Shown here one piece after another: positions 25,049-40,481 of a stretch of DNA of 64,000 bases. The notes beneath the pieces were generated by a model that made no database searches, was not told the DNA's origin, and saw only the letters and a program-made list of their open reading frames with translations. Both the position numbers and the translations under genes were made by a program. The DNA comes from Arthrobacter sp. H35-D1 (GTDB lineage Bacteria > Actinomycetota > Actinomycetes > Actinomycetales > Micrococcaceae), in contig NZ_JASISP010000002.1 in the NCBI RefSeq assembly GCF_030063185.1, forward strand, positions 246,614 to 310,613, read 5' to 3'. Positions within the stretch are counted from its first letter, which is position 1; each line of letters begins with the position of its first letter.

Positions 25049-25549
25049 TTATTCCGTGGAGACCGAGCAATCGGTGTCCGAGACCTCTGCTGTGACGGAA
25101 ATGTCTGTGCTGTCCTTGCTGAAAATTCGCAGCTCTCCCCCGCTGCCATCCGTGGAGCTGATTCCCTGCCACCCGCCCTTGATGGAATCCGTGTCCTTGA
25201 TCTCGGCAAAGCCGCTGTCCTGCAACACCGGGTTGACGGCCTCCATGACTGCCTCCCAGCCGCCGGCAAGGTCCGGCAGCGAATCCTGGGAGCGCAGGGT
25301 CCCTATGGACAGGAAGCACTTGCCGTCGCTGTGCCGGCTGAGCCGGGTTTGCTGATTGTCCACCGGCAGCCACGGCTCGCCCGGGAATTTCGCCGCCAGA
25401 GTGTCGCCGATGTCGGTGGAGAGCTGCTGATACTGCGGACCAGCCTCGGCCGCGGTAAGCGTAGTGGACGAGCTGCAGGAGGCGGTAGCCAGCGCTGTGC
25501 AAACCAGCACCACGGAGAGGCGTGCCGGTGTGCGGAATACTTTCAACAT
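25049..25549 (-). CDS. lipoprotein of unknown function, paralogue of a nearby pseudogene
   Basis: The 166-aa product has a signal peptide ending in the lipobox LATASC (Cys near residue 25). The mature part includes AEAGPQYQQLSTDIGDTL, a Cys in DGKCFLSIGTL, and ends with SGGELRIFSKDSTDISVTAEVSDTDCSV; two Cys could form a disulfide. It is divergent from the WXG-calpain gene with 114 bp between. A clear but broken relative lies at 28013-28420 on the same strand. A surface role, for instance as partner or protector for the secreted protease, is a guess from location. Confidence 0.8.
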   Translation of the reverse strand: MLKVFRTPARLSVVLVCTALATASCSSSTTLTAAEAGPQYQQLSTDIGDTLAAKFPGEPWLPVDNQQTRLSRHSDGKCFLSIGTLRSQDSLPDLAGGWEAVMEAVNPVLQDSGFAEIKDTDSIKGGWQGISSTDGSGGELRIFSKDSTDISVTAEVSDTDCSVSTE

Positions 25550-25663: not shown

Positions 25664-26776
25664 GTGAACAACATGATCGGTGCCGATCCCGAACAATTGC
25701 GGGAGTTCGCGCGTGCCGCCTTGAAGGGCAGCGAGCAACTGGCACGGGCCGAGTCCATGATCTCCACCAGCCTGTCCCAATCACGGTGGCAGGGACCCGA
25801 CTCACAGCGCTTCAAAGCCAAATGGGGCTCCGACCACCGCACCAGGCTGAAGACCGTGGGGGCCGAATTGCGGGACATTGCCTCAGCCCTCAAGCGCAAT
25901 GCCGAGGAGCAGGAGAAGGCCAGTGCCGTTGACTCCGGCGGCGCGGGCGGCCCCGGCGCACCCGGCGGCGACAGAAGCGACCGCGACCAGCCGGGCGACC
26001 CGGACCCCTTCGACGGCATGGGCGAATACCACGACCTCCCGGAGGACATCCCCCTGGACGACGAAGCGCTGGACCCAACCAACATGGAACAGGGCAGGCT
26101 CGGCGACTGCTGGTTCCTGGCGGCAGCCGGCGCAGTGTCCAAGAACGATCCGGACTGGATCAGGGACCACATGGAAAAGAACGACGACGGCACCTGGACG
26201 GTAAAAATGTACAAGGACGGGGAGCCCGTCTACATCACGGTGGAGGGCACAGTCCCGGAAGGCTCAGTTCATGACGCCAGCGGCAATGACAACTGGCTTT
26301 CCATCTACGAAAAAGCCGCAGCGGAGTACTTTGGCGGCGACTACGAAGATCTCGACGGCGGGTTCAGCCACGACGGCCTGGCCGCAATTACCGGCCAAGA
26401 TGTGCAAAAAACTGGAGAAACCAACTTTGACGACCTCGCCGAGAAGCTGGAGAACGGTCCGGTTGCCGTGGGCACTGAAGACGAGCCGGACGGCAGCCGC
26501 AACTGGTTCTTTGAGTCGGACAAGATCGACGACGACCGCATCGTCCCCAATCACGCGTACATCGTCGATACCGTTGAATCCCGCGAGAACCCGGACACCG
26601 GCGAGTCTGAGACAATGATCCACCTGATCAACCCGTGGGGCCCCAACGGGGGAAACTTGGAGGGCGACACCACCACAGATGGCCAGAACCAGCGCTGGGG
26701 CGATATCTGGCTCACTGAAGAGCAGTACAAGGAGAACTTCGATTCCGTGTACTCCTCCGCGTCAACGAAGGATTAG
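25664..26776 (+). CDS. WXG100-like protein fused to a calpain-type cysteine protease
   Basis: The 370-aa protein starts at a GTG with AGGAG 6 nt upstream. Residues 1-90 form a helical hairpin of the ESAT-6/WXG100 type with SRWQGPDSQRF (W42-x-G44). After a Gly/Ala/Asp-rich linker (90-135) comes a calpain (C2) protease core: GRLGDCWFLAA (Cys149), VPNHAYIVD (His297) and LINPWG (Asn323), a complete triad. WXG domains are export signals for type VII secretion, so the protein is probably a secreted protease effector or toxin, with substrate unknown. No type VII secretion machinery genes lie in the window. The small gene 9 bp downstream is a likely partner. Confidence 0.88.
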   Translation: MNNMIGADPEQLREFARAALKGSEQLARAESMISTSLSQSRWQGPDSQRFKAKWGSDHRTRLKTVGAELRDIASALKRNAEEQEKASAVDSGGAGGPGAPGGDRSDRDQPGDPDPFDGMGEYHDLPEDIPLDDEALDPTNMEQGRLGDCWFLAAAGAVSKNDPDWIRDHMEKNDDGTWTVKMYKDGEPVYITVEGTVPEGSVHDASGNDNWLSIYEKAAAEYFGGDYEDLDGGFSHDGLAAITGQDVQKTGETNFDDLAEKLENGPVAVGTEDEPDGSRNWFFESDKIDDDRIVPNHAYIVDTVESRENPDTGESETMIHLINPWGPNGGNLEGDTTTDGQNQRWGDIWLTEEQYKENFDSVYSSASTKD

Positions 26777-26785
26777 GGGACTTAG

Positions 26786-27064
26786 ATGGAAACCGAAAAA
26801 GTAACTCTCAGCGCGGGACAGGGGTCTCAACCCACTGTGGGGACGCTGCGCATCGGCATTATTGATGTTGCCAGGTACGACGGCGTGTCCAAGGCCCGCC
26901 TTCTGCTCCGTCCGGCGTCGGGAGACCGGGCAGTGACGGTCACGGAGGGCACCTCCGTGACCGTGCCCGGACACGGTGAACTAACCCTGGAGCATGTATC
27001 GACCGACGGGAAAGGTTCCGTCACCCTCAGTCTGCAAAGCTCTCCCGCCGCTCCGGCGGATTAG
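26786..27064 (+). CDS. small beta-rich protein, candidate partner of the calpain-like protease
   Basis: The 92-aa product begins METEKVTLSAGQGSQPTVGT, lacks a signal peptide, and alternates hydrophobic and polar residues as in a small beta-barrel (LRIGIIDVARY, RLLLRPASG, TVTEGTSVTVPGHGELTLEHV). GGGGA precedes the ATG and it starts 9 bp after the protease stop, so both are made from one mRNA. That position suits an inhibitor or immunity protein, or a beta-sandwich chaperone. No Cys and no catalytic motif is present. Its stop overlaps the next gene's stop by 3-4 bp on the opposite strand. Confidence 0.72.
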   Translation: METEKVTLSAGQGSQPTVGTLRIGIIDVARYDGVSKARLLLRPASGDRAVTVTEGTSVTVPGHGELTLEHVSTDGKGSVTLSLQSSPAAPAD

Positions 27065-27861
27065 GCGCGCAGCACGTCCTTGGTGGCGTGGTCGTAGTGG
27101 AACGTCACGGGTCCGCCGTCGTGGGAGAACTCGTGGTTGGCGCCGCCGTTCACGCCGAACGCACCGTAGTTTTCATCCCACGACCCGTTCACCACGGCCT
27201 TGTAGCTGTACTGGCCTGCAGGCAGTTCGGTGGTGAGCTTCCAAACGCCACGCCGGCGGTCCAGCTTCATCTGGACGGCGTCGTGGCTCGGATCCCAGTT
27301 CGCCGCTCCGACTGCAACGCCAAAATCGCCAACCAATGCCACTGACGCGGGCTGGTTTTCAAGCACGACGTCGGACGCATCCGTTGCGGATTCCTCGGCG
27401 GCTGGGGCGGTGGAACCGTTGGCGGACGGAGCGGATGTCTTTGCCGCGGACTGCTTGGCCGGGGTTTCCTTGGCCGGCTTGGCGGCGGGCTTTTCCGCAG
27501 GCTTTTTGGGCAGTGCCGTATTCGCCGGGGCTTCGGTACCTGTTGTCAGAGCTTCAATGAGCTTGTCCACAGTGTTGAAAGCGACGGTGGCCTTCAGTCC
27601 GTTTTCGGTGATTTCCCAGCCGCTGCGGCCTTTGGTCATCCAGTTGGCCTTGGCCAGGATTGCCGTTGCCTTGGTGAGGTTCTTGTGGCCGCGGGGAATG
27701 CCGCCGCTGAGGAGTTCGGACTCTTCCGGGGTGAACGGAACGCGGGCAACGGCTTCTGCCAGCACCTCTCCCCCGTTGGGCTTCGCATCCAGCCACGATC
27801 CGGCGGCCATGATGTCCAGAACTTCTTTGAGTCGACGATTGGTGTTGTCGCGAATGCTCAC
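27061..27861 (-). CDS. protein with a C-terminal pullulanase X25-like (E-set) domain
   Basis: I place the start at the GTG giving MSIRDNTNRRLKEVLD because AAGGAG lies 8 nt upstream. The 266-aa protein has a helical N-terminal domain (1-90, ending in a winged-helix-like WMTKGRSGWEITENGLKAT), a long Ala/Lys/Pro linker (95-160), and a C-terminal beta domain SVALVGDFGVAVGAANWDPSHDAVQMKLDRRRGVWKLTTELPAGQYSYKAVVNGSWDENYG, which matches the X25/glycogen-binding E-set module found in pullulanases. No glycosidase domain is attached, so it may bind starch-like polymer or serve as a regulator. Function unknown. Confidence 0.8.
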   Translation of the reverse strand: MSIRDNTNRRLKEVLDIMAAGSWLDAKPNGGEVLAEAVARVPFTPEESELLSGGIPRGHKNLTKATAILAKANWMTKGRSGWEITENGLKATVAFNTVDKLIEALTTGTEAPANTALPKKPAEKPAAKPAKETPAKQSAAKTSAPSANGSTAPAAEESATDASDVVLENQPASVALVGDFGVAVGAANWDPSHDAVQMKLDRRRGVWKLTTELPAGQYSYKAVVNGSWDENYGAFGVNGGANHEFSHDGGPVTFHYDHATKDVLRA

Positions 27862-28012
27862 AGCAGATCTCCTTGTAACAGCGGGGTGTCTATCTACTGT
27901 GACACGGTATGCAGGTACCGGCGAGTACGTGACGCTGATGGTCATCATTCCTGTCGACATCACCGCAGCTATGTGCATCACATAGTCGCAAATCAAGGAG
28001 CTCGTCGCGACA

Positions 28013-28420
28013 CTACTGCACTACGTTCATTGTGCAGATCTCCTCCGACGCCTCGGTGCTGACCGCGATTTTTGTGGAGCTCTTCGCTGTGATCCGCAGC
28101 TCGCCACCGAGGTTATTGATGGAGGTGATGCCGGCCCACGCACCCTGAATGGAGTCTTCGTAGGTGCTGTGGGCGAATCCTGCATCATCCAGAGCCGGCT
28201 CAATGATCTCCATGACCGACTTCCATCCGCAGGCCAGTCCGCGCAAGTCCTTACATAAATTGAAATGTGCCGATGCAGAGGTTGCACACTCCCTCCTTGT
28301 TCGTCCGTATGCTGGCCCCATTTCCTTCGACAGGAGCCAGTTCCAGGCCATGGCATTCAGCACTCACAACTTAGCTGATGTCCGTGGTCAACTGCTGATA
28401 CGCCGCACAAGCTTCGGCAG
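28013..28420 (-). pseudogene. decayed paralogue of the lipoprotein at 25049-25549
   Basis: Reading the minus strand in shifting frames gives AYQQLTTDIS then a stop, then ELAPVEGNGASIRTNKEGVC followed by NLCIGTFQF and a stop, then GLACGWKSVMEIIEPALDDA, EDSIQGAWAGITSI and GGELRITAKSSTKIAVSTEA. Each segment aligns in order with the intact lipoprotein (AYQQL/QYQQL, KCFLSIGTL, LAGGWEAVMEAVNPVLQD, SIKGGWQGIS, GGELRIFSKDSTDISVTAE). The signal peptide and lipobox are missing. So this is a truncated copy with at least one stop and two frameshifts. The two copies bracket the WXG-calpain and X25 genes. Confidence 0.82.
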
Positions 28421-28500
28421 GTCATAGGAGGGTAGGAACACGGTAGCCCTCCGCCGGTCAAGCGGTCAGGTCAAGCACAACACCGAGCACTATTGTTACC

Positions 28501-28515
28501 ACCCCATTTTGGGGT
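28501..28515. terminator. short hairpin downstream of the CBS-HEPN gene
   Basis: ACCCCATTTTGGGGT forms a 6-bp stem with a 3-nt loop about 45 bp after the stop of the minus-strand gene. There is no U-tract, so termination is uncertain; it may simply mark the left edge of the island. Confidence 0.35.
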
Positions 28516-28559
28516 AATCACATGAGTGGTTACGAATATTTCACTCCAAGTCTTTGACG

Positions 28560-29369
28560 TCACTCAACATCTATAGAGATAGAGGAACTTTCAAAGGACT
28601 GTTCAAGCGCATTTTGAATGGATTCAAGATTATGAATCCTACTTATGAGATCACCAAGATCTCGGCCACTCGTATACAGCGAACGGTCTGGATGCATAAC
28701 ATCGTTCCTGAGCGCCACCAACCCTCTTTTTAATCCAGTCCAAGAGCCAAAGGAACGGAGCGATTCTTTAAATCCTTCCTGCTTACCAGCAATCTGAAGT
28801 AAATCGGCCAAGTTGCAAGCCGCAAAACAATCAATAAACTCATCGTCGATCTTTTGTCTTGCAATAAATTCAGAAAGTATTTCTTGTCGTGTTTGGGACA
28901 AAAGTAAAAGAGCATCCGCACTGTCCACGAAGCAACTTCTGAGATATTTGCAGAAGTTCATTTCCACACTCGCAACCCTTAAGTAAATAAATGATTTTCC
29001 GATTGGCGATCCGAGATCAACTGCTGTGACAAAGCCCGTCAATCGGCTCCCCTCAAGGATGAACTGAAATGGATCCTCAAGTAACCTATTTGCGGTTTCG
29101 ATGAATCCCGTATCTGCTGAAATGATAGATCTCATGCCAATAGCTTGCATGGCTTCACCTGCTTCCACCCCAGATTTACAGTCTGAAAGTACAAGCACTC
29201 CCACTGGTACTCCACCTTCAATTACGGGACAGCTGTCGAACTGCCGACTCCTCAACGTAAGCGAGACTTCAAGACTGTCCGCCTGAGGAGCGCAGGAAAA
29301 TACTTCCGAAATGGGCCGAGCAATATGGCTTACCTTAATAAATTCTCGGTTTCCTAAAATTAATTCCAC
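28560..29369 (-). CDS. CBS-pair protein with C-terminal HEPN-type RNxxxH motif
   Basis: The 269-aa protein has two CBS-like repeats (about 13-65, PISEVF..PQADSLEVSLTLRSRQFDSCPVI.GGVPVGVLV, and 80-120, GFIETANRLLEDPFQFILEGSRLTGFVTAVDLG). These are followed by a helical C-terminal domain with LVALRNDVMHPDRSL (R221, N222, H226). Rx4-6H with a polar residue after Arg is the catalytic motif of HEPN ribonucleases. CBS pairs usually bind adenosyl nucleotides, so ligand-gated RNA cleavage is a reasonable model. GC content is well below the host. The GTG start has a poor ribosome binding site and the true start may lie a few codons downstream. It is the most downstream gene of a minus-strand trio. Confidence 0.75.
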   Translation of the reverse strand: MELILGNREFIKVSHIARPISEVFSCAPQADSLEVSLTLRSRQFDSCPVIEGGVPVGVLVLSDCKSGVEAGEAMQAIGMRSIISADTGFIETANRLLEDPFQFILEGSRLTGFVTAVDLGSPIGKSFIYLRVASVEMNFCKYLRSCFVDSADALLLLSQTRQEILSEFIARQKIDDEFIDCFAACNLADLLQIAGKQEGFKESLRSFGSWTGLKRGLVALRNDVMHPDRSLYTSGRDLGDLISRIHNLESIQNALEQSFESSSISIDVE

Positions 29370-29457
29370 ACCTAGGTCCGATCGTTCATTTCAGATGGAT
29401 GTTCTCGGTAAAAATAGCTTAAGGTAAATTCATCATTAAGTAAATCGAAATCTATAG

Positions 29458-32400
29458 CTACTGCGCCACGGCTGCGGCATCCGCAAACACATCGGCAGGC
29501 ATGGCCCTCTGCAGCTTCCAGGTGATGGCGATTGGCTTCTCACCCTTGTGTTGGACGTAGTCCACCTGACCAAGGCACGTGTAAGGCATGGTCAACCCAG
29601 TTTCGTCTTCCGCTGCATCCCGGGTGAAGAGCACAATCTGCGATCCGTGAGACGCCCGGTCCAAATAGCGCAGCCCCGTCGGACTCGATGGTGACGTCGC
29701 GTTTTGCGACTCCCAGTGAAACAGTTCGGGGCTGACCGCATAGTCCTTGTACATGGTCGTCGCCGAATGATTGGATTCGTTCTTGTTCAGAGTCACGAAG
29801 AAGGCATCTGTCTTCGTTTCCGAACACCATGCAACACCTTCGCGGTGGCTGACGTTCTTACCCTTGGCCAGCGATCCGAACTCCAATGCGGCAAGTATTT
29901 CTTCGCGCCTGTACGTGGCGTGCGAGAGCAAGGGGATGCCAGCCAGCTCCATGCCCAGGCTCTTGCCTGCTCGCTTGGAGGCTTGTGCCGCCACAGAGAC
30001 AAGCTGCTGAATCTCATGACATACGAAGGGGTAATTTCGCAGATGCCTGAACCCGGCGTCGTAGGAAGTGAAGCCGCCCGCATCGTCCCACAGGGTATAG
30101 AAGAGCATCTTGGCGAAAACCTGTTCGCGCGGTGTCAGCTCGGAGTAGGACGGGGCGCCGTTGGACACAAGCATCGAATACGTCTCGGCTCGTTCCTGGT
30201 CATCGACATGGATGAGGGCAGCCATCCGGGACAGCAGCTTGTCCTCGGCCGCGTACGACAAGCTCTCGAGCTTGCCGATTATCAAGGCTTCCGCCGGCGA
30301 GAGTCCTCCAATTAGGTTGGCCTTCCGCAGATATCCGGTCCAGGAATCTTTCGTCGAGCGGTAAATAGTCTTTATGTCGTGGCCGGACTTCACCAGGTAT
30401 TCCGCAAGCAGCACCTCAGCATAGGACTTTATGTCCCTAACCAAGCTGGGCCGGTTCAAGTTCAGTTGTGCTTTCAAACCGGTCAGGACAACATCCTTGG
30501 CCACACGGTCAAGGATAATATGCGACCCGGACGGCAGGAACGGGAAATCATCCTCGACTGCCTTCGCCAACTGCTTCCGCCCGTACCCAGTCAGTGCCCG
30601 GTACCGAACATCGAAGCGGAACTCTCGGTGCTGCTGCCCGATGAAGTCCAAAACGGTAAGAACGGCCTTGTCCGGGGCCCGGCGCAACCCGCGCCCCAGT
30701 TGTTGGATGAAGATCGTGGAACTTTGCGTGGGTCGAAGCAGCAGAATCGTGTCCACCTGAGGCAGATCCAGCCCTTCGTTGAACAAGTCGACGGCGAATA
30801 TGCAGTTGATTTCCCGAACACGCAACCTTCGCAGCGCAAGCGCGCGTTCGGCGTCGTCCGTTTGGCCCGACACTGCGACCGATGCGATCCCGGCACGGTT
30901 GAACACTTCAGCCATGTAAACGGCATGTTGGACGGAGACACAGAATCCGATGGCGCGCATGTCCGCGGTGCTGGTGACCTTCTCCCGCAGCTCCCTAATG
31001 ACCTTTGCAGCGCGTGCATCATTGCCGGTGTAGAGCTGGCTCAGCTGCTGAAGGTCGTAGGAGCCGCGCTTCCACTCCAGATGGCTCAGGTCGACGTCGT
31101 CCGACACCCCGAAATAGTGGAACGGCACGAGCAAGTCCGCATCCAGCGCGTCCCACAGTCGCAGCTCGCTGGCCGTGCGCCCCTCGAAAAATTCGTCTGC
31201 AACGTGGATTCCGTCGCCCCGCTCAGGTGTTGCCGTGAGCCCCAGCAGTTCCATGGGTTCCAGATGGTCGATGAGCTTGCGGTACGTGGGCGCTGCCGAA
31301 TGGTGGAACTCGTCGATGACGACGACGTCGAAGCGGTCTGCCTGCAATGCGTCGATGCCCTTGGCCGAAAGCGACTGGACGCTGGCGAAGACGTGCTTCC
31401 ACAGTGTGGGCTTGCGCTCGCCGACGTAAAGCTCGCCGAAAGCGCCATCCTGCATGACGTTGCGGTAGGTCGTCATTGACTGTTGCAGGATTTCCTTGCG
31501 GTGGGCGACGAAAAGCAGTGACAAGTCCCGCCCTGCGGCCTCGCACAAACGCTTGTAGTCGAGTCCGGCGATGACAGTTTTGCCCGTACCCGTGGCGGCA
31601 ACGAGCAAGTTTCGGTGGAAGCCCTTGGCGCGTTCGGCCTCGAGGTCCTCAAGCATCTCTTCCTGGTGGAGATACGGCTGGACTTCCAATCCAGTAATCG
31701 CGTCGGGCGCGGCCGTGAATTTGCCGCCATTGCGGGCTAGGGCGGCGTCCAGCTTGTCGGCGTCAAGCCCTGGATCGTATCTTTGGAACGCCCGCTGTTC
31801 CCAGTAGCTGTCGAACGTGACGCCAAACTTTTGAAGCAGGGCAGGGGTCCCTACGTTGGAGAGCCGCACATTCCATTCGAGTCCGTCCAACATGGCAGCC
31901 TGGCTCAAGTTGGAGCTGCCCACATATGCTGTGTCGAAGGCTGTGTTGCGACGGAACAGCCAGGCCTTTGCGTGGAGCCGTGTGGACTGCGTCTCGTAGC
32001 TGATCTTCACCTCGGCGCCATACTCGTTGACGAGGTGGTCGATGGCCCGTCGCTCGGTGGCGCCCATGTATGTGGTGGTGATGACTCGAAGTTTTCCGCC
32101 GCGTTCCTTCAAGCCAAGCAGTGCGGAATCCAGGAGACGGATTCCTGTCCAGCGAATGAAAGCACAGAGTAGGTCAACGGAATCTGCGGACTCAATCTCG
32201 GCTCGAATCTCTGCGGCGAGGTTCGGGTCATCTTTCCCGTTGGTCAGCAGCGCGCTGTCGCTGAGCAGCGTTGTTGGCCTGCGCAGCTGCCGGCGCTTCA
32301 GAGTATCAGGCCGATGCAGCGATTGAAGTTGCTGCGGACCCGTGGTGACTTGATTCCCAGGGTCTATGACTCTCAGAATCTGGTTGGCTTTGGCAACACG

Positions 32401-32613
32401 ATCCTCGGCTTTGATGCCCTTGAGCACTTCGCGGACGGCATCGGCAACATGCCGGGCAAGGACATCCGGCGAGATTTCCTTATCGACCTGGACAAGCTCC
32501 TGCTGCAGCTCCGGTACCAGCCGTAGCCGATTTCCCAAGTCATCGGTATGCAGCAGCTCGTAGAGCCCTTCGACCAGCAATTCTGCCGGCTCTCCCCCAT
32601 CAAATATGTTCAC
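29458..32613 (-). CDS. PLD-nuclease / SF2 helicase / DUF3427 protein
   Basis: This large protein (1051 aa from the GTG at 32613) has an N-terminal phospholipase-D-type domain with one HxK motif (STRLHAKAWLF), and then a superfamily 2 helicase: Walker A ATGTGKTVIAG, Walker B VIDEFHH (DEFH), motif III LGLTATPER, motif VI QQLGRGLRR. A long C-terminal part matches DUF3427. Proteins of this layout occur in defence islands and restriction-like loci, and presumably translocate on nucleic acid and cut it. The start is uncertain: the frame is open to a TTG at 32694, and a TTG at 32580 behind GGGGGAG is also plausible. GC content is closer to the host than that of its two AT-rich neighbours. Confidence 0.88.
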   Translation of the reverse strand: MNIFDGGEPAELLVEGLYELLHTDDLGNRLRLVPELQQELVQVDKEISPDVLARHVADAVREVLKGIKAEDRVAKANQILRVIDPGNQVTTGPQQLQSLHRPDTLKRRQLRRPTTLLSDSALLTNGKDDPNLAAEIRAEIESADSVDLLCAFIRWTGIRLLDSALLGLKERGGKLRVITTTYMGATERRAIDHLVNEYGAEVKISYETQSTRLHAKAWLFRRNTAFDTAYVGSSNLSQAAMLDGLEWNVRLSNVGTPALLQKFGVTFDSYWEQRAFQRYDPGLDADKLDAALARNGGKFTAAPDAITGLEVQPYLHQEEMLEDLEAERAKGFHRNLLVAATGTGKTVIAGLDYKRLCEAAGRDLSLLFVAHRKEILQQSMTTYRNVMQDGAFGELYVGERKPTLWKHVFASVQSLSAKGIDALQADRFDVVVIDEFHHSAAPTYRKLIDHLEPMELLGLTATPERGDGIHVADEFFEGRTASELRLWDALDADLLVPFHYFGVSDDVDLSHLEWKRGSYDLQQLSQLYTGNDARAAKVIRELREKVTSTADMRAIGFCVSVQHAVYMAEVFNRAGIASVAVSGQTDDAERALALRRLRVREINCIFAVDLFNEGLDLPQVDTILLLRPTQSSTIFIQQLGRGLRRAPDKAVLTVLDFIGQQHREFRFDVRYRALTGYGRKQLAKAVEDDFPFLPSGSHIILDRVAKDVVLTGLKAQLNLNRPSLVRDIKSYAEVLLAEYLVKSGHDIKTIYRSTKDSWTGYLRKANLIGGLSPAEALIIGKLESLSYAAEDKLLSRMAALIHVDDQERAETYSMLVSNGAPSYSELTPREQVFAKMLFYTLWDDAGGFTSYDAGFRHLRNYPFVCHEIQQLVSVAAQASKRAGKSLGMELAGIPLLSHATYRREEILAALEFGSLAKGKNVSHREGVAWCSETKTDAFFVTLNKNESNHSATTMYKDYAVSPELFHWESQNATSPSSPTGLRYLDRASHGSQIVLFTRDAAEDETGLTMPYTCLGQVDYVQHKGEKPIAITWKLQRAMPADVFADAAAVAQ

Positions 32614-32815
32614 CAGGCCAGGGTATGCGATTGGTGCGACAACGACGAATGGTGAGGATTTTCCGACCGAGGACTGGAGCGCATATTTTGGCAATCAACC
32701 CAACGATCCGCCGCATCAAGTATCCTCTCAAAGAGACCCAAAATAATCATCTTCAAACTTGTTAAAGTAATCTTCAACCTACAGCACTAAATCGAGTTAG
32801 CAGCTAATATATGCA

Positions 32816-35377
32816 CTATTTAACCTTCCCAATTTTATCATTCACAAAATGCTGCCACCGTGTTTTTTGTGCTCGAAACCTCAGCACATCTGCCAAATCT
32901 CGAAGGGATTCAGCGGTCTTTATACTGATATTTTTTATTTGATCAAAACTTCCGACAATTAATTCATTAAGTATGCGTTCCCGTTGTCCGAAAGTAGGCT
33001 GCGAACCCTTAATCACAAAAGAATAAGATATCTTGCATAGAATCTTGTTATAGTCGCTATAGTGACCCTCTTTTAAATACCGTCCAATCAATTCAAGTGC
33101 GGGAACAATTTGAGTAGAGTCTGACAACTCGAAGAGAACATTAAGCTGCAGAAGTAAATCTGCTTCCGACCAGCGACCTAATTCACTCGGCCCACATGCC
33201 ATCAGATTACGCGCCGTTTTGAATTCTTTTGCTATATACATCGCACGTGCAGCGACGCGCCAAGCCCCTGGGACTGCACTCCCAAGATACAGCGTAATAT
33301 CAATCAGTTGATCCTGCTCCAACAATTCTCGTGACAAATTTTCGGACACACGATTGAAAAAATAACTGAGATCCAAAGTATCCGAGTCGATCGTCGCAGT
33401 CTTCAATGGGCCGAGAAGGCGGAGATATTCGCTGTCAGCCAAAATTTCCGTGGTCAAGCCGTGATGCTTTACGCGACTCGCACCAAAATTAAAAGAAGCT
33501 GCGGGTACATTCAACCATCGGGGCTCTTCTTTACCTGTAGGGCGTAGAACTTCGACCATGCTGCTTACGACTAGTTCGTCAATGGCAGCCTCTACGTCGA
33601 TATTATCTTGATTACCCGTCCTTCGTTGAACAGCATCAAGGGCGGCCAAGGGCACGACACTCCGCCAGCTGCACAGAAGTAAGAATGTTCGCTGAGCTCC
33701 AAGACTGAGCCTTTCGAACGATCGCTGAAAGAGTGCATCCAAAATATCGTCGCGTTTCGCCAATACGCGCTCTACTTTCTTGGGTATACGGTGTTCCCTA
33801 GCTATATCCCCAAGAACGATTTTGACCACATAGGGATGTCCGTATGTTTCACGGTGGAGAGAACGGATATAAGTTGGTGATTCAGCTAGAATTGTAACGA
33901 TATTTAATCGACTGGCAGTATTTTTAACTAAAATATCAAATTCGTCAAATTCCATACCAACAATTTCGATAGGGTATTGGCCTTTGAAGTCTGTAAACCT
34001 AGTGGTGATTAGCAGTTTATTGGGAAGCCGAACGCTCGATTTTAATACTCTAAATAATGCCGCCGGTTCCAATATAGTTTCAAAATTATCGAATACGAAC
34101 AGAGTCCGTTCACCGGCACTTCCTCGCAATGCGGACCTGAATGCATCTTCCGGTTTACTCACGTCATATCCCATAGCCTTAACCAGACTAGAATATGATT
34201 CCGCTGCATCTCCAAAACTCAATACTTTTGGCTTTACAGCGACTGCCCCTTCGGTATCTAATAAATCGACATCGCGGGCGCTAAACCAAAGAATTAAATC
34301 GAATTCTCCCTGTTCAGCTATAGTATGAAGCACCTGCAGAGCAGTGGAAGTTTTACCAATGCCACCAGGGCCACCCAATGTGATTATGGGATCAATCTCT
34401 GGGTCGAGAAGTTCATCAAATAGCTCTTTTTCTAATACCTCACGTTCGACATAGTCCTCTTTTTTGGGTGGTAAATTACCCCAAGTTGAACCCTGCAGGT
34501 CTAATTCCATAAGTCCTTCGGATTCACTCGGAGATAACAATTGAGGCTCAAGTGCATATTGGGATGCTAACGTCCGTTTACGCAACCCTGTGTGATACGA
34601 CAGTGCTTCATACGATTGATCTCTGTCTAAATAATGTCCGTTCGCAAAAAAAATATCGTCACCACCGGGCAACACCTCAGCCAAGTGTACATTCAGCGCT
34701 TTATCTTCACAGATTAAGATAAGACCTTTACGTGGACATTCTTCTGGAATGTCAATTTTTGCTTCCGCGAGGAGCACATACCGCGGGTCTCCAACGATTG
34801 TTTCTGTGACAAGGCACCATGGTAGTCGTAAAAGCTCAAAATTATTGGAGAGCATTTTTAATGATTCTGATAGATATCCGGCCGCGTCCACGACCTGCCC
34901 AAGAACGGGCGCACCATGATCATACTTATTACGAATATTCGCAAATCGAGTAAAGAATGAAACAATGGCTGATTTTTCCGTACGCACTGAAGGCTCAGAT
35001 ATTCCAATTGCTCGTTCTGTACTTTCCAACAAATTCAAGCATTCTGCCTGCCACGCCTCTGATGCTCTGTTAAACCGCTGGGTTACTTGGCCAATAATAG
35101 AGCTAGATTCTCGACGAAATATACTCTTTGCTGGCCCTGTGACTAATTTCTGAAATTCGTAAGCCCAAGATCCCACACCTGGAGACCTGACTAGGTTATA
35201 TTCTGCTTCGTAGCGAAAGAGGTGATCTTTGTCTGTGTCGAGCAAAGCTAGGGAATTTATAAGAGCGATTTTGGTCGTCAATTCACCATAGCGAAGTAGC
35301 GACTTAAATCGCGCAACATCTCCGTCGAAAGACTCATTTTCGACACGAATTTGCATCATCTGCAGTGGTGTCTTCAT
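32816..35377 (-). CDS. STAND (NB-ARC-like) NTPase with N-terminal HEPN-type domain
   Basis: The 853-aa protein starts MKTPLQMMQIRVENES. Residues 25-185 are helical and contain FANIRNKYDHGAP (R149, N150, H154), the RNxxxH signature of HEPN RNases. A beta-rich segment follows (190-300), then an NB-ARC-type ATPase: P-loop GGPGGIGKTS (335-344), Walker B TLFVFDNFE (425-433), sensor-like LLITTR (455-460), and the GxP motif YGHPYVV (512-518). The C-terminus (about 620-853) is helical and TPR-like, the usual sensor part of NLR-type proteins. It is AT-rich and foreign-looking. By family logic it detects a trigger through the C-terminus, oligomerises with ATP, and activates the HEPN nuclease. No ribosome binding site is obvious. 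Confidence 0.82.
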   Translation of the reverse strand: MKTPLQMMQIRVENESFDGDVARFKSLLRYGELTTKIALINSLALLDTDKDHLFRYEAEYNLVRSPGVGSWAYEFQKLVTGPAKSIFRRESSSIIGQVTQRFNRASEAWQAECLNLLESTERAIGISEPSVRTEKSAIVSFFTRFANIRNKYDHGAPVLGQVVDAAGYLSESLKMLSNNFELLRLPWCLVTETIVGDPRYVLLAEAKIDIPEECPRKGLILICEDKALNVHLAEVLPGGDDIFFANGHYLDRDQSYEALSYHTGLRKRTLASQYALEPQLLSPSESEGLMELDLQGSTWGNLPPKKEDYVEREVLEKELFDELLDPEIDPIITLGGPGGIGKTSTALQVLHTIAEQGEFDLILWFSARDVDLLDTEGAVAVKPKVLSFGDAAESYSSLVKAMGYDVSKPEDAFRSALRGSAGERTLFVFDNFETILEPAALFRVLKSSVRLPNKLLITTRFTDFKGQYPIEIVGMEFDEFDILVKNTASRLNIVTILAESPTYIRSLHRETYGHPYVVKIVLGDIAREHRIPKKVERVLAKRDDILDALFQRSFERLSLGAQRTFLLLCSWRSVVPLAALDAVQRRTGNQDNIDVEAAIDELVVSSMVEVLRPTGKEEPRWLNVPAASFNFGASRVKHHGLTTEILADSEYLRLLGPLKTATIDSDTLDLSYFFNRVSENLSRELLEQDQLIDITLYLGSAVPGAWRVAARAMYIAKEFKTARNLMACGPSELGRWSEADLLLQLNVLFELSDSTQIVPALELIGRYLKEGHYSDYNKILCKISYSFVIKGSQPTFGQRERILNELIVGSFDQIKNISIKTAESLRDLADVLRFRAQKTRWQHFVNDKIGKVK

Positions 35378-36039
35378 GGAACTAGCTTGCCACAGGTCAA
35401 AGACTTTGTCATTGAATTCTGCCCCATGATTTTGCCTCGCCCATTCATACGGGTCAGCCCAAGTCTAGGCTGCTTTATGCTCTTTGACCGTGGCGCAATT
35501 GATGGATTCTACAGGGCTGATGGAGACGATGCCGGGGTCGAAGTGGGCTACGATCGGGGCCGTCCACGCGGGCATGCTTCGGGATTAAGGATCCGTCTGA
35601 CAACGGGGCGCTAAGTATTTTCCGTCAGTCGCCTTTCGTCGAAGACAGCGCTTGAGCAACTGGGGCATTCGGGTTTCGGGGCTTCTACCCCACGGGCATC
35701 AGGAAATCGATCCCGGCGGTGATTGAGTGTTCTACCGGTGCCATCGATGCCACGGGTGCTGGTGACCAGACAGACTATGGACACGTTGTACCCGTAAGCC
35801 TCGCCACCACGCCACCACGCCACCACGCCATTCTTGCCCCTGCTACCTCCTTGGTGGACATCATTCACAGGTCCGCCAAGCACCTGTGGGGGCTGTTGTG
35901 GTGATCGGACGCTGCTGTAGCGGCCTCCGATCACCACAACAGCCCCCGAAGGTATTTGGCGCCCACTGCGCAAATGGTTCCGCACCGATTTCAACGGACG
36001 GAGGGAGTTCTTATACTTGTAGAAACTGGAGAATGCGCT
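35378..36039. other. 660-bp intergenic right flank of the HEPN island
   Basis: I see no supported gene. The first 100 bp are AT-rich and belong to the island; from about 35480 the composition returns to host-like. The stretch holds three 8-bp tandem copies of GCCACCAC (35803-35826) and a 22-bp perfect inverted repeat (35888-35947). Open frames across it on both strands lack ribosome binding sites and family similarity that I can see; it may contain gene debris. Confidence 0.5.
35888..35947. repeat. 22-bp perfect inverted repeat
   Basis: Left arm 35888-35909 (GGGGGCTGTTGTGGTGAT then CGGA) and right arm 35926-35947 pair perfectly around a 16-nt loop. It lies 90 bp upstream of the antitoxin gene. 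It could be a bidirectional terminator without U-tract, a transposon relic, or a recombination site. Confidence 0.85.
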
Positions 36040-36276
36040 ATGGCTAAAAATCAGACGAACTTGCGGATCGAAAAGAGTCTGGACCACCGTCTTGAAGTTC
36101 TCGCCAAGCGGACCGGGCGAAGCAAGGCCTTCCACGCAGCAGAGGCAATCGAGGGCTTCCTTGACGACCAAGAAGACTGTCTTCTTGCCCAGGACAACTT
36201 GGCGGATTTTCGCAACGAAGATGACTCTGCAATGCTGCTTCACGAGGACGTCAACTGGGATGCACTCGGTCAATGA
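36040..36276 (+). CDS. antitoxin, ribbon-helix-helix / RelB-DinJ type
   Basis: The 78-aa protein begins MAKNQTNLRIEKSLDHRLEV, a beta strand then helix typical of ribbon-helix-helix DNA-binding antitoxins, with LAKRTGRSKAFHAAEAIEGFLDD continuing the fold and an acidic C-terminal tail (NEDDSAMLLHEDVNWDALG) that would wrap the toxin. GGAG lies 8 nt upstream of the ATG. Its stop overlaps the next start as ATGA, the usual arrangement with a RelE-type toxin, but here the toxin frame is truncated. Confidence 0.85.
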   Translation: MAKNQTNLRIEKSLDHRLEVLAKRTGRSKAFHAAEAIEGFLDDQEDCLLAQDNLADFRNEDDSAMLLHEDVNWDALGQ

Positions 36277-39075: not shown

Positions 39076-39729
39076 CTAGATTTGGGGGCTTCCTGGATTG
39101 AGAATCTCAATGTTCAGGCCGTTGAGATAGTCGGCCAGCCAATCGAAGCCCCGCCCGGCAGCGAAAATCCGACCATGCAAAGGCAGCGGTTCCAGATCCC
39201 CTGATTGCACCCTGTCTCCGAAGAAAACATAAGCCCGGTCCGTGTTGCGGCGACTGCTCATCCACACCAGTCCGTCAAACCCCGCTTCATGGGCTGCCTC
39301 GGCCCAGCGCACAGTTCGGTCGTACTGGTCCGCCATAGTGTCGGTTACCTGCTTGGCTTCTGTTCCGAGGATGCGCAGTCCGTCGCCCATCAGGGAGGCA
39401 AGCCGCAGGTCGCGGGTGGGCGCCAAGGGAGCGCATACCCGGTCCGCCACATTTCGATACAGTACTTTTCCCGGACCCGGGGGAACTTCGTGCAGTATGG
39501 ATTCACACACCGCAGCCTGCTCGGTATCTGCGGCATAAAGCACGGGCACAACCGGAGCGCCAAAGAATGCGAACCGGGTTCTTGATCCAATCCCCGGGTT
39601 GAAGTCTGTCACCCTCCGGGGACTTCCCTCTCCGTGGTTGGCATTGCCGAAGACTCGATACAGCACAGTGCCGCGCTGGAGCGCATGTTCCTGCGCCTGG
39701 AAAGGGGTGGGAGGAACGCGGTTCACCAT
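39076..39729 (-). CDS. RES-domain toxin, module 1
   Basis: The 217-aa protein matches RES toxins, which degrade NAD+ by phosphorolysis and stop growth. Key residues in the usual order are R25 in TVLYRVF, Y65 in PVLYAAD, E76 in AVCESILHEV, and a C-terminal FDGLVWMSSRRNTDRAYVFFGDRV with the conserved Ser. Its start overlaps the antitoxin stop by 7 bp, so translation is coupled. It is the second gene of a minus-strand operon and is a separate subtype from the RES protein at 41344, being longer and with low similarity outside the core. Confidence 0.88.
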   Translation of the reverse strand: MVNRVPPTPFQAQEHALQRGTVLYRVFGNANHGEGSPRRVTDFNPGIGSRTRFAFFGAPVVPVLYAADTEQAAVCESILHEVPPGPGKVLYRNVADRVCAPLAPTRDLRLASLMGDGLRILGTEAKQVTDTMADQYDRTVRWAEAAHEAGFDGLVWMSSRRNTDRAYVFFGDRVQSGDLEPLPLHGRIFAAGRGFDWLADYLNGLNIEILNPGSPQI

Positions 39730-40481
39730 TCGACGTTGAAGGACTGCCTGGCCGCTTCCACCACCGTTTCGGGGCTGTCCAGCTGATCAACCGGCCGGGC
39801 GCCATCAAGGTAGCCGGTCGGCGAGTACAGCCATAGCGCCAGATCTGCTTCCGAGTTGTCCGCCGTCGCGGCCACTTCAATGAGCTCCTTCATGACCGGC
39901 CTAATGGCGTGCTCGCGAGAGTCGATCTGAAACCCGGGATAACGCAGTCCACCGGGCCGTCTGATCGCCAAGAGCTTGCCCCTTGCGCGTTGCTCCGAGG
40001 CGTAGCTGCGGTTCGGCGATTTGGAGCCGGCCGATTGGGAAACTTCCAGACTGGAGAGCAGACCGAACTCTGCCTCCATGTCACGCCACACGTTCTCTGT
40101 GGACTGCATGCTCCGAGCGAGTTGCGGTGATACGGGCGTTTCGACTTCAGCCAGCGCACGGCCCAGTACTGCAACACTGCGCTCCATGTTGACCGCAGCA
40201 GCCACCTGCCCATCGACGGACCGATGCCGCAGGATGGCTCCCGACGATTGACCGACAAGGCTGGCCAAAAGACTGTCGCGGAGGGCGCTCATCTGCGAGC
40301 GCGCTGGTTCAGTTGTTGGCAGCCGTGCGTCAAGTACGAGTGCAGCGGCGAAAATTGTCTCATCCATCTGGGTTGAAGAGGCCTGCGTTTGAGTGAGCGT
40401 TTCGTGATCGCCATCGGGAGCACGCCCGGCTGGGCGGCGAACTTCCACGTCCCCAACAACTAACTTCTTCGAATTTGCCAT
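39723..40481 (-). CDS. antitoxin of RES module 1
   Basis: The 252-aa protein precedes the RES toxin. The N-terminal half is polar and helical; the C-terminal part (ADLALWLYSPTGYLDGARPVDQLDSPETVVEAARQSFNVEW) is the toxin-binding region of the Xre/MbcA/ParS (DUF2384-like) antitoxins, ending in a short tail that reaches into the NAD site. I do not see a clear helix-turn-helix in the N-terminus, so DNA binding is uncertain. AGGAG lies 7 nt before the ATG and a TATAAT box 29 bp upstream. Confidence 0.8.
   Translation of the reverse strand: MANSKKLVVGDVEVRRPAGRAPDGDHETLTQTQASSTQMDETIFAAALVLDARLPTTEPARSQMSALRDSLLASLVGQSSGAILRHRSVDGQVAAAVNMERSVAVLGRALAEVETPVSPQLARSMQSTENVWRDMEAEFGLLSSLEVSQSAGSKSPNRSYASEQRARGKLLAIRRPGGLRYPGFQIDSREHAIRPVMKELIEVAATADNSEADLALWLYSPTGYLDGARPVDQLDSPETVVEAARQSFNVEW

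What the first reader, a model, noticed from the sequence alone, without database searches (positions are those of the whole stretch)
28560..35377. Candidate immunity island: CBS-HEPN protein, PLD-helicase-DUF3427, and HEPN-STAND NTPase
Three minus-strand genes in a row carry two separate HEPN-type RNxxxH motifs (RNDVMH in the first, RNKYDH in the third) on either side of a PLD/SF2 helicase. HEPN domains are RNases used in abortive infection and toxin systems, STAND NTPases act as NLR-like pathogen sensors, CBS pairs bind nucleotides, and PLD-helicases process foreign nucleic acid. The combination of nucleotide-sensing HEPN plus NLR-like HEPN plus helicase is not one I can match to a named defence system. 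Association as one system is inference from order and strand; no overlap between the genes is seen.
Basis: partly seen in the sequence, partly recalled or inferred. Interest (0 to 1): 0.88.

Follow-up and report, generated by a model that had tools for sequence, protein, structure and literature searches.

The report
Restriction enzyme flanked by CBS-HEPN, STAND
A soil bacterium's DNA-cutting defence gene has picked up two unrelated predicted immune genes, one on each side; one of them belongs to a rare family of predicted RNA-cutting proteins with a nucleotide-binding sensor that often turns up beside DNA-cutting defence systems, perhaps as their backup.

Summary
The three genes are real and as described, but they are not one three-gene system. 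The middle gene is a SauUSI-like type IV restriction enzyme (PADLOC mREase_IV, 1109 bits), present in 14 of 22 other genus genomes at 65-92% identity. The two outer genes are low-GC additions (0.442) at its two ends; relatives have near-empty sites of about 81 and 127 bp there. No full-length STAND relative was found in 294 other family genomes. The CBS-HEPN gene is more interesting. Searches gave 13 bacterial loci of a patchy family; the R-N/D-x3-H site is nearly invariant (R 23, H 24 of 24 sequences used). In 8 of 13 it lies beside or near a restriction-type system: SauUSI-like twice, complete DISARM twice, DISARM-like, Dpd/DISARM-like, Hma/GmrSD-like, and a UvrD-methyltransferase cluster. 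A ninth is fused to a RAMA (restriction-associated) domain. In one PADLOC scan, 7 of 13 loci had restriction-type hits, against one hit of any kind at 19 control places. An E. coli CBS+HEPN protein, DS-11, is a published anti-phage gene. Best reading: a nucleotide-gated suicide RNase that recurrently joins DNA restriction. RNase activity and coupling are inferred, not shown.

The parts
28560..29369 (-). CBS-HEPN protein, 269 aa: CBS pair (about 15-120), HEPN region (about 122-260), motif RNDVMH at 221-226
   Evidence: ORF; motif; CBS weak in Pfam; R and H in 23 and 24 of 24 sequences used; HEPN region matches HEPN-STAND N-termini by hhalign, Prob 97, E 8e-11
29458..32694 (-). SauUSI-like type IV restriction enzyme, 1078 aa as called (homology begins at residue 7-16 in most close relatives): PLD nuclease (HxK 241, GSSN 259), SF2 helicase (GTGKT 369, DEFH 461), DUF3427
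   Evidence: Pfam; PADLOC mREase_IV PDLC03659, 1109 bits; motifs; genus homologues
32816..35377 (-). STAND/NB-ARC NTPase, 853 aa: RNKYDH at 149-154 in the N-terminal region, P-loop GPGGIGKT 336, FDNFE 429
   Evidence: Pfam NB-ARC 24.0 bits over cut-off 23.5; motifs; no full-length relative found
27935..29453 (.). Segment absent from a close relative (1519 bp against about 81 bp in genome G284); carries the CBS-HEPN gene and a 116-aa lipoprotein-like ORF
   Evidence: blastn of the window against L042
32643..36012 (.). Segment absent from a close relative (3370 bp against about 127 bp in genome G277); carries the STAND gene; its helicase-side edge lies about 50 nt inside the helicase ORF as called
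   Evidence: blastn of the window against L043
27061..27996 (-). X25/Mrr_N-like protein, a genus-conserved neighbour of the helicase (not proposed as part of the mechanism)
   Evidence: Pfam X25_BaPul_like 69.6 bits, Mrr_N weak; cluster c2, in 13 of 17 loci compared

Best explanation
The locus is a resident type IV (modification-dependent) restriction gene with two separately acquired defence genes lodged at its ends. Proposed working: (1) the PLD-helicase binds modified phage DNA, translocates with ATP and cuts it (from family knowledge of SauUSI; not shown here). (2) The CBS-HEPN protein is a dimeric RNase held off, or switched on, by an adenine nucleotide bound to its CBS pair; when infection or DNA breakdown changes that ligand, the HEPN pair cuts RNA (tRNA or mRNA) and stops growth. 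It is a backup for when restriction fails or is inhibited, as PrrC is for its type I enzyme (inferred). (3) The STAND protein is an independent NLR-like sensor that may fire its own N-terminal HEPN-like effector (inferred). Shown here: the domains, the conserved HEPN site, the extra segments, and the recurrent placing of CBS-HEPN genes beside restriction-type systems. Not shown: RNase activity, ligand, physical contact with the restriction enzyme, phage protection.
For: Helicase = PADLOC mREase_IV, 1109 bits, with intact PLD and SF2 motifs; 14 of 22 other genus genomes have it at 65-92% identity, two more at 34%. Low GC of both flanking genes and near-empty sites at the helicase ends. CBS-HEPN lies directly downstream of the same helicase (mREase_IV 1108.5 bits) in Arthrobacter silviterrae, 51% identical; in the helicase tree the two genomes fall in different clades. 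CBS-HEPN relatives lie beside DISARM with DrmA, DrmB and DrmC (L101: 1025, 236, 209 bits; L104: 937, 247, 160 bits), DrmD-DrmMI (L098: 627, 291 bits), a Dpd/DISARM-like operon (L060: DpdE 1036 bits), HmaA at 1507 bits with a GmrSD_N protein and a HEPN-nucleotidyltransferase pair (L097), and a UvrD/methyltransferase cluster (L099). In L147 a RAMA domain (78 bits) is fused ahead of CBS and RNNVMH. The 65 nearest genes of 13 loci hit 87 PADLOC families at 1e-20 (25 shown); 106 control genes from 19 places in the same genomes hit 1. By locus, restriction-type hits in 7 of 13 against any hit in 1 of 19, Fisher p 0.003; 4 of 9 once the four loci used to build the search profile are left out, p 0.026. 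Conserved R/H and profile match to HEPN. DS-11 needs its CBS tyrosine and HEPN residues for defence (PMC13092281, passages).
Against: 5 of 13 bacterial loci (L061, L100, L102, L103, L147) show no restriction system beside the gene in the stretch read; L061 and L102 are short contigs, L103 lies near a contig end, L147 has the RAMA fusion, and in L100 the neighbour is a trypsin-CHAT-ATPase-TPR protein. Most haloarchaeal plasmid members have no restriction gene directly adjacent. One member used (L061) has lost the R and N of the motif, and one left out of that count (L064) lacks the whole motif, its gene ending at a transposase gene. 13 of the 14 other close genus helicases have no CBS-HEPN in the genome, so the pair is optional. 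Genus slots beside the helicase hold many kinds of gene, so a hotspot alone could explain adjacency. The AlphaFold model is uninformative.
Confidence: 0.5

Rival explanations
1. Plain defence hotspot: the helicase gene is merely a landing place; CBS-HEPN and STAND are stand-alone defence genes with no functional tie to it or to each other.
For: Slots on both sides of the helicase vary across the genus: HNH-like and NERD/UvrD-like proteins (labels by eye) and many singletons. DS-11 works as a one-protein system (PMC13092281, passages). Most haloarchaeal members have no restriction gene directly beside them.
Against: CBS-HEPN sits directly downstream, same strand, in two separated helicase clades; relatives adjoin several other restriction types, and one is fused to a RAMA domain.
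Confidence: 0.38
2. One three-gene immune system: STAND sensor, helicase and CBS-HEPN act together.
For: Same strand, short gaps, equal GC of the two outer genes; no minus-strand terminator-like site in the two gaps. One distant CBS-HEPN gene (L100) lies near a large protein with a STAND-type ATPase stretch.
Against: Co-occurrence fails: no STAND match in the 14 other genus genomes with a close helicase, A. silviterrae among them, and only two weak NTPase-region matches at the other 12 bacterial CBS-HEPN loci.
Confidence: 0.05
3. The CBS-HEPN protein is a non-catalytic or regulatory nucleotide/RNA-binding protein rather than a toxin.
For: L061 lacks R and N of the motif; non-catalytic HEPN domains exist (PMC3710099 abstract passage).
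Against: R and N/D kept in 23 and H in 24 of 24 sequences used, while identity to the window protein falls to about 20%.
Confidence: 0.1

Closest known systems
DS-11 (DefensePredictor, Science 2026, PMC13092281; passages read)
   Same: One protein with CBS and HEPN domains; an aromatic residue also sits near the end of the CBS pair here (position 129, Y/F in 23 of 24; that it matches DS-11 Y157 is a guess)
   Different: DS-11 is reported as a single-protein E. coli system; the family here often adjoins restriction systems.
SauUSI, type IV restriction enzyme (PMC3874153; passages read)
   Same: N-terminal PLD, middle ATPase/helicase, C-terminal DUF3427 in one chain
   Different: About 140 aa lie before the match to the PADLOC model; substrate unknown
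PrrC with PrrI, HEPN guard of a type I enzyme (PMC3710099; passages read)
   Same: HEPN nuclease encoded beside a restriction system, sensing nucleotides, acting as second line
   Different: PrrC uses an ABC ATPase, not a CBS pair, and is tied to type I R-M
Backup HEPN effectors in BREX/BR and CoCoNuT loci (PMC12839542, PMC11090510; passages read)
   Same: HEPN RNase as last-resort effector next to DNA restriction
   Different: 'CBS' occurs 0 times in either main text
HEPN-STAND-TPR-S1 proteins (PMC3710099 table, passage read)
   Same: N-terminal HEPN-like motif, then STAND NTPase
   Different: The window protein has no TPR or cold-shock match in Pfam at E 0.1 and only a weak match to HEPN

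Membership tests
SauUSI-like type IV restriction enzyme | PLD nuclease + SF2 helicase + C-terminal DUF3427 in one chain | tested here: met
   Pfam PLDc_2, ResIII, Helicase_C, DUF3427 all above cut-off; PADLOC mREase_IV 1109 bits over 139-1076
SauUSI-like type IV restriction enzyme | Intact catalytic motifs | tested here: met
   HAK 241, GSSN 259, GTGKT 369, DEFH 461; not aligned residue by residue with SauUSI
SauUSI-like type IV restriction enzyme | Cuts m5C/hm5C DNA with ATP | not testable with these tools
   -
HEPN superfamily (CBS-HEPN protein) | Conserved R-x4-6-H | tested here: met
   R 23/24, N/D 23/24, H 24/24; truncated L064 and near-duplicate L066 left out
HEPN superfamily (CBS-HEPN protein) | Profile similarity to known HEPN families | tested here: met
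   HEPN_Swt1 in 3 of 14 members, best 1.3e-4, below Pfam cut-off, not in the window protein itself; hhalign Prob 97, E 8e-11 with HEPN-STAND N-termini
HEPN superfamily (CBS-HEPN protein) | Helical-bundle fold | tested here: inconclusive
   C-terminal part modelled as helices, but pLDDT 38
DS-11-type CBS-HEPN | CBS pair plus HEPN in one protein | tested here: met
   CBS in 11 of 14 members at E <= 0.5; HEPN as above
DS-11-type CBS-HEPN | Sequence homology to DS-11 | not testable with these tools
DS-11-type CBS-HEPN | Anti-phage activity needing CBS ligand residue and HEPN residues | not testable with these tools
STAND NTPase | P-loop NTPase of the NB-ARC/NACHT type | tested here: met
   NB-ARC 24.0 bits over cut-off 23.5; P-loop and FDNFE
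HEPN-STAND proteins | N-terminal HEPN | tested here: inconclusive
   RNKYDH aligns with RNRVAH of HEPN-STAND proteins, but Prob 3.4, E 0.013; against the CBS-HEPN profile Prob 0.7; no Pfam hit for residues 1-310

The most novel reading that the evidence does not exclude
CBS-HEPN proteins are a portable guard module: a nucleotide-gated RNase that has independently docked onto several kinds of DNA-targeting defence (SauUSI-type, DISARM, Hma/GmrSD, Dpd-like, and by fusion a RAMA domain) and fires on a nucleotide signal made when the DNA-targeting system is engaged or defeated. (Raised from 0.30 to 0.34 after the RAMA fusion was found.)
Probability: 0.34. Interest if true: 0.72.

Novelty: new variant of a known kind. 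Interest (0 to 1): 0.48.

Why it matters
If the link holds, one small RNase family would serve as a common backup for very different restriction systems, as PrrC does for one type I enzyme, and the CBS ligand would be a nucleotide signal of failed restriction. It would also give a role to an unassigned CBS gene seen beside two DISARM, one Hma and two SauUSI-like loci here. Searches of the held open-licence library showed no title or abstract start tying CBS-HEPN proteins to these systems, nor did the passages read in five papers; most listed papers were not opened, and subscription journals are largely missing.

Tried and rejected
Three-gene system: rejected on co-occurrence. Phage or plasmid carriage: no match of CBS-HEPN or STAND in 50,697 phage records; none in viral contigs by peptide pattern; in 72,556 plasmid records only haloarchaeal CBS-HEPN relatives and no STAND match. 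Universal restriction link: rejected, see evidence against. Structure: one two-sequence AlphaFold job, mean pLDDT 38, not used for a fold search; the STAND N-terminus was never folded because the queue was full. Genome-wide statistics were not possible; shuffles and window genes were used instead. More family members in the families of G890 and G843: none beyond those known (39 and 101 genomes).

Rows dropped before counts: of 42 of 396 phylum genomes with a match, G000 and the 8 whose match reached well into the HEPN part were kept; two of the rest (G814, G759) were read and not counted. Of 63 of 394 class genomes, G000, G398, G401 and G388 were kept; the C-termini of the other, CBS-region matches were not checked. 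In the 24-sequence motif count L064 (truncated, no motif) and L066 (near-duplicate of L065) were left out; L143-L145 came in by matches over the HEPN part only. G221 was left out of the helicase tree because the script's motif filter found no frame for it. Control places were chosen by me, mostly at round coordinates or contig starts; several are short contigs and they are not matched in length. The PADLOC table shows only 25 of 87 families, so 7 of 13 is a floor; L100's hit to a PADLOC TPR model is not counted as restriction. L099 counts among the 8 of 13 by reading; its UvrD and methyltransferase genes lie fourth and fifth from the CBS-HEPN gene, outside the three nearest genes scanned.
Full report
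What is there. The three ORFs are intact on the minus strand at the stated places. Gene 2 carries a PLD nuclease, an SF2 helicase and DUF3427, all above Pfam cut-offs, and matches PADLOC's type IV methyl-directed restriction enzyme over 139-1076 at 1109 bits. SauUSI has this domain order and cuts m5C and hm5C DNA with ATP (PMC3874153, passages read). The PLD and helicase motifs are intact. Gene 1 has a weak CBS pair and RNDVMH at 221-226; gene 3 has NB-ARC/STAND motifs and RNKYDH at 149-154.

Where it sits. The window belongs to a 4.46-Mb genome. A helicase at 65-92% identity is in 14 of 22 other genus genomes (one copy, G052, is cut by a contig end) and two more have one at 34%. In several of them it stands between a sulfate-permease gene and an X25/Mrr_N-like gene with a methyltransferase gene behind it. 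The genes immediately next to it vary from genome to genome.

Two extra segments. Genes 1 and 3 have GC 0.442, against 0.59-0.67 for the other 19 large window genes listed. Against genome G284 the window has 1519 extra bp (27935-29453), starting 4 nt beyond the helicase ORF; against G277 it has 3370 extra bp (32643-36012) at the other end, starting about 50 nt inside the helicase ORF as called. Both outer genes therefore look acquired beside a resident restriction gene; loss from the relatives is not excluded, but the low GC speaks for gain. No minus-strand terminator-like site was found in the two gaps, but such scans are weak.

Co-occurrence. CBS-HEPN: 3 of 295 family genomes match; one is this genome, one is G211 (51%, residues 8-256), and the third, G075, is a CBS-only piece. 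In G211 it again lies directly downstream of the helicase, 124 nt away, same strand. STAND: 7 of 295 genomes match, but apart from the gene itself every listed match covers 250 residues or fewer around the NTPase at 25-37% identity; nothing in plasmid or phage records by tblastn, or in viral contigs by peptide pattern. At the other 12 bacterial CBS-HEPN loci tblastn with the STAND protein gave two weak NTPase-region matches, in L097 (a KAP NTPase) and L100 (a trypsin-CHAT-ATPase-TPR protein). The three-gene unit was thus not seen again in what was searched. In a maximum-likelihood tree of 14 helicases (window and 13 of the 14 relatives) the window and G211 lie in different clades among relatives without CBS-HEPN. 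Either it was gained twice at the same spot, or gained once and lost many times; CBS-HEPN identity (51%) is well below helicase identity (82%), which mildly favours two gains.

The CBS-HEPN family. Single-protein and profile searches of family, class and phylum samples gave 13 bacterial loci with both parts, the window included. Two further family samples gave no new ones, so it is rare and patchy in what was sampled. Over 24 sequences (13 bacterial, 11 haloarchaeal; truncated L064 and near-duplicate L066 left out) R221 is kept in 23, N/D222 in 23, H226 in 24, CBS D118 in 24, and an aromatic residue at 129 in 23. The C-terminal part matches the N-termini of five HEPN-STAND proteins by hhalign at Prob 97, E 8e-11, 109 columns; of three of those scanned, one matches Pfam HEPN_Swt1 at 1.1e-4 and two more weakly. 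Two single-sequence comparisons with the same profile, a stretch of the helicase as control and the window STAND N-terminus, gave Prob 1.0 and 0.7. The AlphaFold model has pLDDT 38 and says nothing reliable.

Its neighbours. Read locus by locus: window and G211, SauUSI-like (1109 and 1108.5 bits); G843 (L101), DrmA 1025, DrmB 236, DrmC 209 bits; G771 (L104), DrmA 937, DrmB 247, DrmC 160 bits; G815 (L098), DrmD 627 bits, DrmMI 291 bits and a UvrD gene; G398 (L060), DpdE 1036 bits with DrmMI- and DruE-like genes; G890 (L097), HmaA 1507 bits, a GmrSD_N protein (91 bits) and a HEPN-nucleotidyltransferase pair; G803 (L099), a divergent cluster with UvrD/Cas4-like and type III methyltransferase (451 bits) genes. 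No restriction system was seen in the stretches read at G401 (L061), G777 (L100), G964 (L102), G1011 (L103) and G388 (L147). In L147, however, the 760-aa protein itself carries a RAMA domain (Restriction Enzyme Adenine Methylase Associated, 78 bits) ahead of CBS and RNNVMH, a fused restriction tie. PADLOC scan of up to three genes on each side: 65 genes hit 87 families at 1e-20 (25 shown), against 1 family (mad2, one gene) for 106 genes at 19 control places in the same genomes. By locus, restriction-type hits in 7 of 13 against any hit in 1 of 19 (p 0.003), or 4 of 9 when the four loci used to build the search profile are left out (p 0.026). The sample is small and the controls are unmatched.

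Counter-evidence. Of 13 haloarchaeal plasmid loci read (PLSDB tables are incomplete), six have an annotated restriction or HNH endonuclease within about 8 kb (L137, L139, L141, L142, L143, L144), but none directly beside the CBS gene; L139 has one a small gene away. L146 has UvrD, PD-(D/E)XK and helicase-related genes around it. In 8 of 13 a gene of 115-127 codons diverges from the CBS gene; seven of these eight are homologous (46-92% identity to L065). So the family can stand without restriction beside it, as DS-11 does.

What is known. HEPN fused to CBS, and at least 16 HEPN clades linked to R-M, were reported in 2013 (PMC3710099, passages). DS-11, one E. coli protein with CBS and HEPN, protects against phage and loses this with Y157A in CBS or with HEPN mutations (PMC13092281, passages). 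HEPN backup effectors are discussed for BREX/BR and CoCoNuT loci, with no mention of CBS in the main text (PMC12839542, PMC11090510, passages). In searches nothing listed pointed to CBS-HEPN beside DISARM, Hma or SauUSI-like genes; most listed papers were not opened.

Verdict. Ordinary in parts, with one fresh thread: a recurrent CBS-HEPN neighbour of DNA-restriction systems, best read as a nucleotide-gated backup RNase. Coupling to restriction is a hypothesis, about as likely as a plain hotspot; the STAND gene looks like an independent neighbour.

Noticed in passing
L147:9141-11423 (genome G388): A 760-aa protein joining a RAMA domain (78 bits) to CBS and a HEPN motif (RNNVMH): a modification-reading candidate fused to the CBS-HEPN unit.
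   Followed up: partly
L011:108-2705 (genome G000, contig C15): A second STAND protein in the same genome: weak Swt1-like HEPN (RNRVAH), NB-ARC, TPR and cold-shock domains, 25% identical to the window STAND over 250 residues of the NTPase.
   Followed up: partly
L100:9118-13356 (genome G777): Trypsin-CHAT-ATPase-TPR protein of 1412 aa close to a CBS-HEPN gene.
   Followed up: partly
39076-40481: RES-domain protein (55 bits) overlapping a gene with a weak MbcA/ParS antitoxin match: a likely RES-Xre type toxin-antitoxin pair.
   Followed up: no
35956-36276: RelB-family antitoxin gene (57.9 bits, cut-off 50) next to the STAND segment; a partner toxin was not looked for.
   Followed up: no
27061-27996: Protein with an X25 pullulanase-type domain and a weak Mrr_N-like stretch, near the restriction gene in much of the genus (cluster c2, 13 of 17 loci compared).
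   Followed up: partly
28013-28363: 116-aa lipoprotein-like ORF that looks like part of the 166-aa ORF at 25049-25549 (by eye); genome G247 has a DNA relative right behind its helicase without CBS-HEPN.
   Followed up: partly
25664-26776: 370-aa protein with a calpain-like signature (GDCWFLAA) after a WXG100-like N-terminus (recognised by eye, not searched).
   Followed up: no
L064-L066, L137-L141: Haloarchaeal CBS-HEPN genes diverge from a small gene in 8 of 13 plasmid loci read; seven of these small proteins (115-118 aa) are homologous. Possible antitoxin or regulator.
   Followed up: partly
L048:12353-15193: In A. silviterrae the other side of the same helicase holds a low-GC (0.42-0.45) three-gene cluster, not identified.
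   Followed up: no
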